From: Tupaia tana
Taxonomy: Eukaryota; Chordata; Mammalia; Scandentia; Tupaiidae
DNA: 64,000 nt
Assembly: GCA_026018925.1 (NCBI GenBank)
Contig: JAKSZU010000018.1
Coordinates: 4,372,920-4,436,919, forward strand
Direction: 5' to 3'
Part shown: positions 34,301-37,300 of the stretch, in pieces
Layout: each line of letters starts with the position of its first letter
How positions within the stretch are numbered: position 1 is the stretch's first letter
The notes under the pieces: model-generated
Told to the model about the DNA's origin: nothing
Databases searched by the model: none
Seen by the model: only the letters and a program-made list of their open reading frames with translations
Translations under genes and position numbers: made by a program

Positions 34301-37300
34301 CTTTGGAGTGATTGGGAGCAAGGACATTTGTGTGCTTTTTTTTGTTTCTTTAATTAAAGGAAAGGAAACTCCTTTTCAAATAAGAGAACACTCTTTATAT
34401 TGGGCCCCACAGTGAAGACAGAAGACCCAGTTAGTTGGTCTCTGCATTGTTGGAACCTGATTCTTCCCTTTTTTTGAGAGAAAGATTTTTTGCTATAGGG
34501 CATGTGCACTTGCCAGAGAAGGAGACAGAGAGAGCAAGAAATCACCCCTTTTTCCTTCATGCTCTCAGGATTTTGGGCATGTCCGCACGTGTGCCCAGCA
34601 CAAGTTTTAAGTTGCCGGGTCTGGGACTCGCAATGCATTCGCCCACGTGGGGATCTGGGAATGTAACCATCTCGGCATCTTCTGGTCCCCTGGTCCTTTA
34701 CTTTACACTCCCCATTTAAAGTGCTCCATGGTGGCCCGAACCAACCCTTAGGAGCTAGCGACTTGAGATCTGGGCCCCAGTAAAATGCTGTGTGTTTGAA
34801 ACAGTGACACCCTGTGGCTTAGAGGTGGCAGTTCTCGATCCCTGGCACTTGGTCCGTTAGGAACTTTGCTCATGGTGGACAGTGAAGAGGAGTACTTCCC
34901 TGAAGAGATCGCCAAGTTGAGGAGGGATGTGGACAACGGCCTTTCGCTTATTGTCTTCAGTGACTGGTACAACACGTCTGTTATGAGAAAAGTGAAGTTC
35001 TACGATGAAAACACAAGGTACCGATATGAGTTGGTATTTGGATAAGAAATATGACTTTTGAGAATGAAATTCTACCCAGAAAATACTTAAGTGACTATTT
35101 GACTTGTTGGCCTTTCCAGTTAGCAGAGACACACCCAGAGAGCTCGGCTGGAGAACGCTTGTTCTCGGCGTAGTGGAGGTGTCCCTGGAAGCCACAGTCA
35201 AATGCGCTTTAATTCTGATTCTGGAGGGTCTGTCGTCTGTCTTTGCCGATCTTAGATACTCGAGCTTTAGATTCGTTCAGTTCTTTACCGCCTTCCCATC
35301 TCCATAACTGGGTGTACCCAAAGTTAAGTGCACCAAAGGGACTGTTTCTTAAAGTTTCTAGTGAACAAGTGATCAATCAAGAATTCCCAACATATTATAA
35401 ATAAATCACCCTTAGAATGCCTTGGAAATTTTTTCTTTCAGAGTCTGTGACTTGAACTTTTGTAAGCTGCTTTCCCATCTCTTTCCTTTCCTGATTCTTG
35501 CTAGGTCTAGGCTAGCAGTTACATGGGGCACATTTCAGGGAAGTGCTTGCTGGCTTTCATTTCATAAAGTAAATTTAGCTTTCATTGATTCTGTGCTTGG
35601 GCTGAATCATTTACATCTCAAGTATTCCCAGGCCCAAACAGTAAGTTTCTGTTGGAACCTTAGTGTAAATGGACTGGATTGTGGGCAAGAGAGATGGTTT
35701 TGTCACGTGAGTGTTTTAGCTCTTTTGTCCTCTGTGCCTCTTGTTGCTGTGACAGACAGTGGTGGATGCCAGACACTGGAGGAGCCAACATCCCAGCTCT
35801 GAATGAGCTGCTGTCAGTGTGGAGCATGGGGTTCAGCGACGGCCTGTATGAAGGGGAGTTTACTCTGGCCAGCCATGACAGTAGGTATCGTTATGAAGGG
35901 GAGTTTACTCTGGCCAGCCATGACAGTAGGTATCGTTATGAAGGGGAGTTTGCCCTGGCCAGCCATGACAGTAGGTTTCATGTTTATGTCTTAATCAGGC
36001 ACCTGGTCCCAGAGGGGTGAGAGTGATAGCTGTGAGCTTGGGAAGTCTGGGATCCAGAGAAACAGGGTGACGGGATTTCTGAACAGGCGGGAGCAGTGGG
36101 AAGAACTAGTTGATATTTGCACAAAGTACATCTTTGAAAATGTACATTAATTACTCGAGCCTTTTTTAAAAAAATTTGCCAGAGAATACATTTGCTCGCT
36201 AGAGAGAGACAGAGGAGTGTTCCGGGGGAAAATGGCCCCCGTGGGGCATGGGTGTGCCACATTGCCTTCTCTACCTCTCCTGCCCTGTGGGGTTTTGGAT
36301 AGGCACGCACATGCATCCACTGTGTGTTTAGGCTGCCAGGTCTGGGACTTGAACTGTGTGGTCAGCCATGTGTGAGTCCAGGGCCTTAGCCACCACATCA
36401 CCGGCTGGCCTGACCAACTTTTAAAATGAAAATGTTATAGGCAAGCATTTCTAATTTTAGTGATTGCTGTGATAGTCTTTACATGCTGTATATTCCTGGA
36501 CAGGAAATACCTTAAAGGTTTCTGAACTTACGGCATCTGGGCACTGTTGACTCATTCTGTGAGTCCTGACTGAGGTGGTTTTCCATCTCTGACTGCTCTG
36601 GCTTATTATAAACTCTTACCTAGAAACCTCACGTTAATAGTTTTTACTTGAATTTTGAGGCGATTACTGATAGTTTAACTATGACAGAACAATAAGAACC
36701 ACTGTTAAAAATGCGAACTGTCTAAAGCACGCGTTTTGGGTGAAGGGGTAGCTGGGGTCAGTGCACCTCGGTGCTGTGACAGCCTGGGCCGACTGTTTCC
36801 TAGTGTACTACGCGTCGGGGTGCAGCATCGCCCGGTTTCCAGAAGATGGCATCGTCATAGCGCAGACTCTGAAGGACCAAGGTAGGGTCCGTTCCTAGGC
36901 CTCTGGGTTTTATTCTCTTTCCTTGCTCCCTCTCTCTCCTCCCTCCCTTTTTTAAAAATGATAACTTTGTTGCATACAACTTACATATGTAAGGTTCACC
37001 CTTTGGAAGTGTACAATTCCATGGTCTTACTGTATTCACAGAACTGCAGGAACCATCGCTGTCTGCTCCAGAACTTTTCATCCCCGGAGAGATCCCAGAC
37101 CTGTTAGCAGTGGGTCTTGTTTAGGGCGGGCCTGACTGCGTGGTGCTGCCTAGGTGTAGCTCTGGGTGATGCTCTCTTGGGGTTGTTAACATGTGCACGC
37201 AGTGACCACCACGGAAGAGACTGGAAATGAAAGTGTATGGTTTCCCAACCTAGCTATTGGCAGCTGCGAGATAGAGTTTATTTTTGTTTTACCTAGAAGG

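What the first reader, a model, noticed from the sequence alone, without database searches (positions are those of the whole stretch)
35847..35981. Triplicated 5' splice site of MBTPS1 exon 17, in frame
Seen directly: a 45-bp unit holding the last 34 nt of exon 17 and its GTAGGT donor is repeated three times. Each donor is in the same phase, so donors 1, 2 and 3 predict proteins of 1052, 1067 or 1082 residues. The first extra block would be [15 protein letters not shown] after Asp784. Units 1 and 2 are identical; unit 3 differs at several bases. Three equal donors in a row in a gene of otherwise fixed length is unusual and could give species-specific S1P isoforms in the luminal region between the protease domain and the anchor. 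Which donor is used is inference.
Basis: seen in the sequence. Interest (0 to 1): 0.75.

Follow-up and report, generated by a model that had tools for sequence, protein, structure and literature searches.

The report
Triplicated splice donor in mammalian MBTPS1
In one mammal's MBTPS1 gene a 45-base stretch carrying a splice site occurs three times in a row; it is real in the assembly, but published splicing experiments suggest that mostly the first copy is used and the protein stays normal.

Summary
A 45-bp unit (last 34 nt of MBTPS1 exon 17 plus 11 nt of intron 17) occurs three times at 35847-35981. Units 1 and 2 are identical; unit 3 matches 41 of 45. All three donors are the same 9-mer, ACA|GTAGGT, in phase, predicting 1052, 1067 or 1082 residues. 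The gene is intact: 22 coding exons, 1020 of 1052 residues equal to human typed from recall. No second MBTPS1 locus or processed copy was found in the 2.95-Gb assembly with the pieces searched.

Three isoforms are possible but not shown. The donor is weak and its introns are long (738 and 923 nt). In published minigenes and a reporter library, the upstream of two equal donors usually wins. The likeliest outcome is the ordinary 1052-residue protein from donor 1, with at most minor +15 or +30 forms. The origin looks like ordinary local tandem duplication in at least two steps; keeping phase without a stop is expected in about 29% of such events. RNA reads and related species could not be examined.

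The parts
35756..35880 (+). MBTPS1 exon 17 as ended by donor 1 (125 nt)
   Evidence: gene model; tblastn aligns 35754-35888 to human S1P 743-787; PDB chains 8uwc and 8uw8 matched
35847..35891 (+). unit 1: last 34 nt of exon 17 plus 11 nt GTAGGTATCGT
35892..35936 (+). unit 2, identical to unit 1 (45/45)
35937..35981 (+). unit 3, 41/45 identical: ACT to GCC in one codon (Thr to Ala if read), and TATCGT to TTTCAT at its intronic end, where the native intron follows
35881..35886 (+). donor 1 GTAGGT (exon end 35880): predicts 1052 aa
   Evidence: A at -1; U1 duplex -5.0 kcal/mol, weakest of the 21 model donors; score 0.62 with recalled base frequencies, third lowest of 21
35926..35931 (+). donor 2 GTAGGT (exon end 35925): would give 1067 aa
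35971..35976 (+). donor 3 GTAGGT (exon end 35970): would give 1082 aa; only this one is followed by the native intron (U 9 of 19 in +10..+28, against 6 of 19 for donors 1 and 2)
36017..36022 (+). donor-like GGG|GTGAGA (exon end 36016), scores above the real donor (3.65 against 0.62; U1 -9.3 against -5.0) but shifts the frame
36804..36881 (+). exon 18, the shared acceptor partner; begins TG TAC TAC, completing codon A|TG = Met785

Best explanation
A short minisatellite-like tandem duplication across the exon 17/intron 17 boundary of an intact MBTPS1 gene. It happened in at least two steps: an older doubling, then divergence of the copies, then a recent copying of the first unit. Each copy carries the same weak 5' splice site. 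Because the exon is short and its introns are long, the spliceosome should define the exon across itself and use mainly the first, upstream donor (35880). That gives the normal 1052-residue site-1 protease and leaves units 2 and 3 as the start of intron 17, where they are spare or decoy donors with at most minor in-frame +15/+30 products. Shown: the repeat, donor identity, phase, intact gene model, intron lengths. Inferred: order of duplication events and which donor is used.
For: Repeat and donors. Intact model with 22 coding exons, 1020/1052 residues equal to human typed from recall. Flanking introns 738 and 923 nt (from coordinates) against an exon-definition threshold of ~250 nt (PMC9225289). 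Identical donors 52 nt apart in exon-defined minigenes: upstream used exclusively when strong, preferred in S and M constructs when both weak; near-equal human pairs prefer the upstream in 60% of events. Tandem-donor library: first site predominantly used when both are consensus. In the human OCT1 8-bp donor duplication both copies work, with slight preference for the original, upstream one in minigenes. GGGG runs lie downstream of donors 1 and 2 inside the next unit, which tends to support upstream donors (recalled). The Thr-to-Ala difference of unit 3 is what an unconstrained copy could show.
Against: The donor is weak, so context may decide; in PMC9225289 the larger exons with weak donors were mostly skipped, and without the strength filter ~60% of human events prefer the downstream donor. 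Only donor 3 keeps the native, U-richer downstream sequence, of a kind that TIA proteins can use to enhance an intron-proximal donor (PMC2964331 passages). The frame is open through all units, so NMD would not remove products of donors 2 or 3. Predicted accessibility was inconsistent between fold windows and supports neither side. A stronger-looking GT at 36016 is apparently not used, showing that score alone does not predict choice here.
Confidence: 0.6

Rival explanations
1. Real multi-isoform gene: two or three of the donors are used at substantial levels, giving S1P with 0, 15 or 30 extra residues in the GIFT subdomain.
For: Identical 9-mers, all in frame, no stop. In the OCT1 8-bp duplication both donors operate in minigenes, 38-52% alternative. 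A weak donor leaves more room for context.
Against: Experiments on equal donors favour the upstream one under exon definition. OCT1 copies are only 8 nt apart against 45 here, and its liver mRNA was 99% canonical by pyrosequencing, though the authors explain that by NMD, which would not apply here.
Confidence: 0.24
2. Donor 3, next to the native intron, is the main donor; the species' S1P is constitutively 1082 residues with two extra copies of the segment.
For: Intron-proximal preference in classic in vitro work and in unfiltered human events, as told in PMC9225289; native U-richer downstream context kept only by donor 3; TIA binding downstream of an intron-proximal donor can enhance it.
Against: Intron 17 is long, so the intron-proximity rule applies less. 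A constitutive 30-residue insertion in a folded subdomain would be a heavy change (inference). Unit 3 carries a Thr-to-Ala change.
Confidence: 0.08
3. Assembly artefact: the true copy number is one or two.
Against: Unit 3 differs in sequence from units 1 and 2, so at least two copies are hard to make by misassembly. The window has no N and lies in a 70.9-Mb contig. One match only was found for the region.
Confidence: 0.08

Closest known systems
Human SLC22A1 (OCT1) rs35854239, 8-bp duplication of the exon 7/intron 7 donor (PMC8137991; abstract and passages seen)
   Same: Tandem duplication at an exon/intron junction copies the donor; both copies can be spliced to the same acceptor.
   Different: 8 bp, one extra copy, frame-shifting and NMD-prone, common polymorphism in humans; here 45 bp, two extra copies, in frame, frequency in the population unknown.
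[quoted passage not shown] passages seen)
   Same: Equal donors some tens of nucleotides apart at one exon end (52 nt in the PMC9225289 minigenes).
   Different: Those are designed constructs or ordinary alternative donors; here the exon end itself occurs three times in a native gene.
Minisatellite / short tandem duplication
   Same: 45-bp head-to-tail units, more than 90% alike, apparent stepwise copy gain.
   Different: Lies across a coding exon end.
Intron gain by tandem genomic duplication (PMC4974935; search listing with start of abstract seen)
   Same: Tandem duplication within a gene bears on splicing.
   Different: There a new intron arises; here an existing intron's donor is multiplied and no new intron is predicted.

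Membership tests
Tandem repeat (minisatellite-like array) | Head-to-tail copies of a unit of tens of bp with high identity | tested here: met
   TRF period 45, 2.9 copies, 97% matches; three in-register copies
Tandem repeat (minisatellite-like array) | Copy number varies between individuals | not testable with these tools
   one assembly, one match, which states that the genome has no relatives here
Alternative (competing) 5' splice sites | Two or more GT donors that can pair with one acceptor | tested here: met
   ACA|GTAGGT at 35880, 35925, 35970, all phase-compatible with exon 18 at 36804; sequence capacity only
Alternative (competing) 5' splice sites | Transcripts showing use of more than one donor | not testable with these tools
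   no RNA data; no processed copy that would record a junction was found
MBTPS1 / site-1 protease | Full-length orthologous coding gene | tested here: met
   22 coding exons, 1052 codons, 1020 equal to human sequence typed from recall; exon 17 peptide matches PDB chains 8uwc and 8uw8, E 5.5e-23 and 5.7e-23
Intron gain by tandem duplication | New intron bounded by copied donor and acceptor | not tested
   only looked at by eye: no pyrimidine tract ahead of an AG inside the array

The most novel reading that the evidence does not exclude
The array is a variable-copy switch: individuals or species with one, two or three units make S1P with 0, 15 or 30 extra residues in the GIFT subdomain, which helps hold the oxyanion loop and contacts SPRING. 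Copy number and splicing would thereby tune SREBP activation in this lineage.
Probability: 0.05. Interest if true: 0.65.

Novelty: new member of a known kind. Interest (0 to 1): 0.28.

Why it matters
If donor 1 is used alone, this is a natural replicate of the minigene experiment: three identical weak donors in a row in a native gene, testing whether upstream choice holds in an animal. If donors 2 or 3 are used, it would be a lineage-specific insertion in a subdomain that supports the active site of the protease that activates SREBPs. It is also a warning for gene prediction, which may pick any of the three exon ends.

Tried and rejected
Retrocopy test: a processed MBTPS1 copy elsewhere in the genome would record the junction. 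A 336-residue piece of the 1052-residue spliced protein (exons 15-22) gave 9 matches: 8 are this gene's own exons and the ninth (E 3.28) is on another contig at 32% identity. The exon 17|18 junction 20-mer with up to 3 mismatches gave 11 matches (reversed control 7), one with 2 mismatches and ten with 3; the 8 of 11 held as loci gave one match to the S1P protein, E 1.5, and no other at E 10 or less. The other 716 residues were not searched genome-wide. No record of the junction was found.

Accessibility of the three donors by folding, in three window sizes: donor 1 0.58, 0.54, 0.38; donor 2 0.61, 0.62, 0.60; donor 3 0.18, 0.53, 0.46. Too inconsistent to use.

Splicing inside the array (donor of one unit to an AG in a later unit) was set aside by eye: no pyrimidine tract.

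In-frame phase as a sign of selection was rejected: with random intronic letters a stop-free, phase-keeping unit is expected in about 29% of cases.

Papers: searches showed no paper on this array or on an MBTPS1 exon 17 isoform among the titles listed (20 of 1,796 and 12 of 51 papers); (FLT3 duplications into intron 14) found 0. Species identity from the SINEs was attempted by eye and left open. ARAGORN found no tRNA gene in the window, which bears on nothing here.

Full report
What is there. The sequence at 35847-35981 holds three head-to-tail copies of a 45-bp unit: copies 1 and 2 are identical and copy 3 matches 41 of 45; TRF agrees (period 45, 2.9 copies, 97%). The unit is the last 34 nt of MBTPS1 exon 17 plus 11 nt of intron 17.

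The gene. Spliced alignment of the window to human S1P (typed from recall) gives 22 coding exons from 1172 to 46873, a frame of 1052 codons and 1020 of 1052 identical residues. The exon 17 peptide matches the human chains in PDB 8uwc and 8uw8 at E 5.5e-23 and 5.7e-23. Exon 17 is 35756-35880 and exon 18 36804-36881, so introns 16 and 17 are 738 and 923 nt. Exon numbering agrees with the human numbering in PMC9874673 (residue 886 in exon 20, residue 258 in exon 6; passages). No second locus was found in the 2.95-Gb assembly with a 401-base DNA query around exon 17 or a 336-residue protein piece; both tools score only their best candidates.

The donors. All three are ACA|GTAGGT. This is a weak site: its U1 duplex (-5.0 kcal/mol) is the weakest of the 21 donors in the model and its matrix score (0.62, base frequencies recalled) is third lowest. 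The three are in phase, so donors 1, 2 and 3 give 1052, 1067 and 1082 residues; the extra blocks are [15 protein letters not shown] and then [15 protein letters not shown], after Asp784. A stronger-looking GT (GGG|GTGAGA, exon end 36016, score 3.65) lies downstream and would shift the frame.

How unusual is it? In 200 kb sampled from 20 places in the same genome (1,850 of these bases read N) there are 18 arrays with period 20-200 and at least 75% matches, against 6 in the 64-kb window: about 9 per 100 kb in both. With at least 2.5 copies and 90% matches there were 0 in the 200 kb and 2 in the window, one of them the array in question and the other the 62-bp array at 1986-2174. Arrays of this quality are therefore of the order of one per few hundred kb; by rough arithmetic (about 130 bp each, some 200,000 donors per mammalian genome, recalled) tens of donors could fall within one if selection did nothing. 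Keeping phase without a stop is expected in about 29% of such events. So the array is unusual for one gene but needs no special cause.

History. Copies 1 and 2 share ACT where copy 3 has GCC, and share TATCGT at the intronic end where copy 3 runs into native intron as TTTCAT. The simplest order is an old doubling, divergence, then a recent copying of the first unit. I set aside the last five bases, which may be native intron; the two differences left over 40 bases correspond to very roughly 11 My at 2.2e-9 per site per year, with a range of 1.4-41 My from the counts alone, and 0.7-90 My over the three rates tried (rates recalled). This is inference; no relatives were available.

Which donor? 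This decides whether the finding matters. Exon 17 is 125 nt with long introns on both sides, so exon definition should apply. In PMC9225289 (passages), minigenes with two identical strong donors 52 nt apart in an internal exon flanked by 365-nt introns used the upstream donor exclusively. With both donors weakened, the upstream one kept its preference in the S and M constructs, while the L and XL exons were mostly skipped. In human data, near-equal pairs preferred the upstream donor in 60% of events, although without the strength filter about 60% preferred the downstream. PMC6783452 (passages) reports first-site predominance when both tandem donors are consensus, and for equal strength generally, with exceptions set by surrounding context. 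In a natural case, the 8-bp donor duplication in human OCT1, both donors work in minigenes (38-52% alternative) while liver shows 0.3-0.6% of the alternative transcript by deep sequencing; the authors point to NMD (abstract and passages). Against donor 1: it is weak, and the U-richer native context stays only with donor 3, a context in which TIA proteins can promote the intron-proximal donor (PMC2964331 passages). On balance I expect donor 1 to dominate (0.6), appreciable mixing at 0.24, donor 3 dominance at 0.08 and wrong copy number at 0.08.

Consequence if donors 2 or 3 are used. Residue 784 falls in the GIFT subdomain (617-998), which packs on the protease loops that hold the oxyanion residue N338 and contacts SPRING (PMC11231238 passages); the passages seen do not say what residue 784 itself does. 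From recall of plant and animal sequences I expect the site to be a turn between two strands, where an insertion could be tolerated, but I did not test this: the spliced protein is not contiguous in the window, so I did not request a fold.

Limits. No RNA, no reads, no related genomes. Seven runs of N in the 200 kb sampled may be gaps or withheld stretches, so the quality of the assembly is unknown; the window itself has none.

Noticed in passing
36017-36022: A donor-like GGG|GTGAGA 46 nt downstream of donor 3 scores above the authentic exon 17 donor and would shift the frame; it may be a cryptic site held in check.
   Followed up: partly
1986-2174: A 62-bp unit in three nearly identical copies (99%) within intron 2 of MBTPS1 (between the exons at 1172-1334 and 2375-2632); another local tandem triplication in the same gene.
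   Followed up: no
55016-55694: A long array of ~39-bp G-rich units (17.6 copies by TRF) downstream of the MBTPS1 coding region.
   Followed up: no
29623-29840: A 108-bp unit in two copies (95%) in intron 12 of MBTPS1 (between the exons at 25693-25837 and 31831-32019).
   Followed up: no
36170-36420, also about 30230-30500, 31180-31400, 34450-34700, 38020-38270: Apparent copies of a tRNA-derived SINE judged by eye only (A- and B-box-like stretches at 36170-36420), not matched to a known family; could identify the mammalian order.
   Followed up: no
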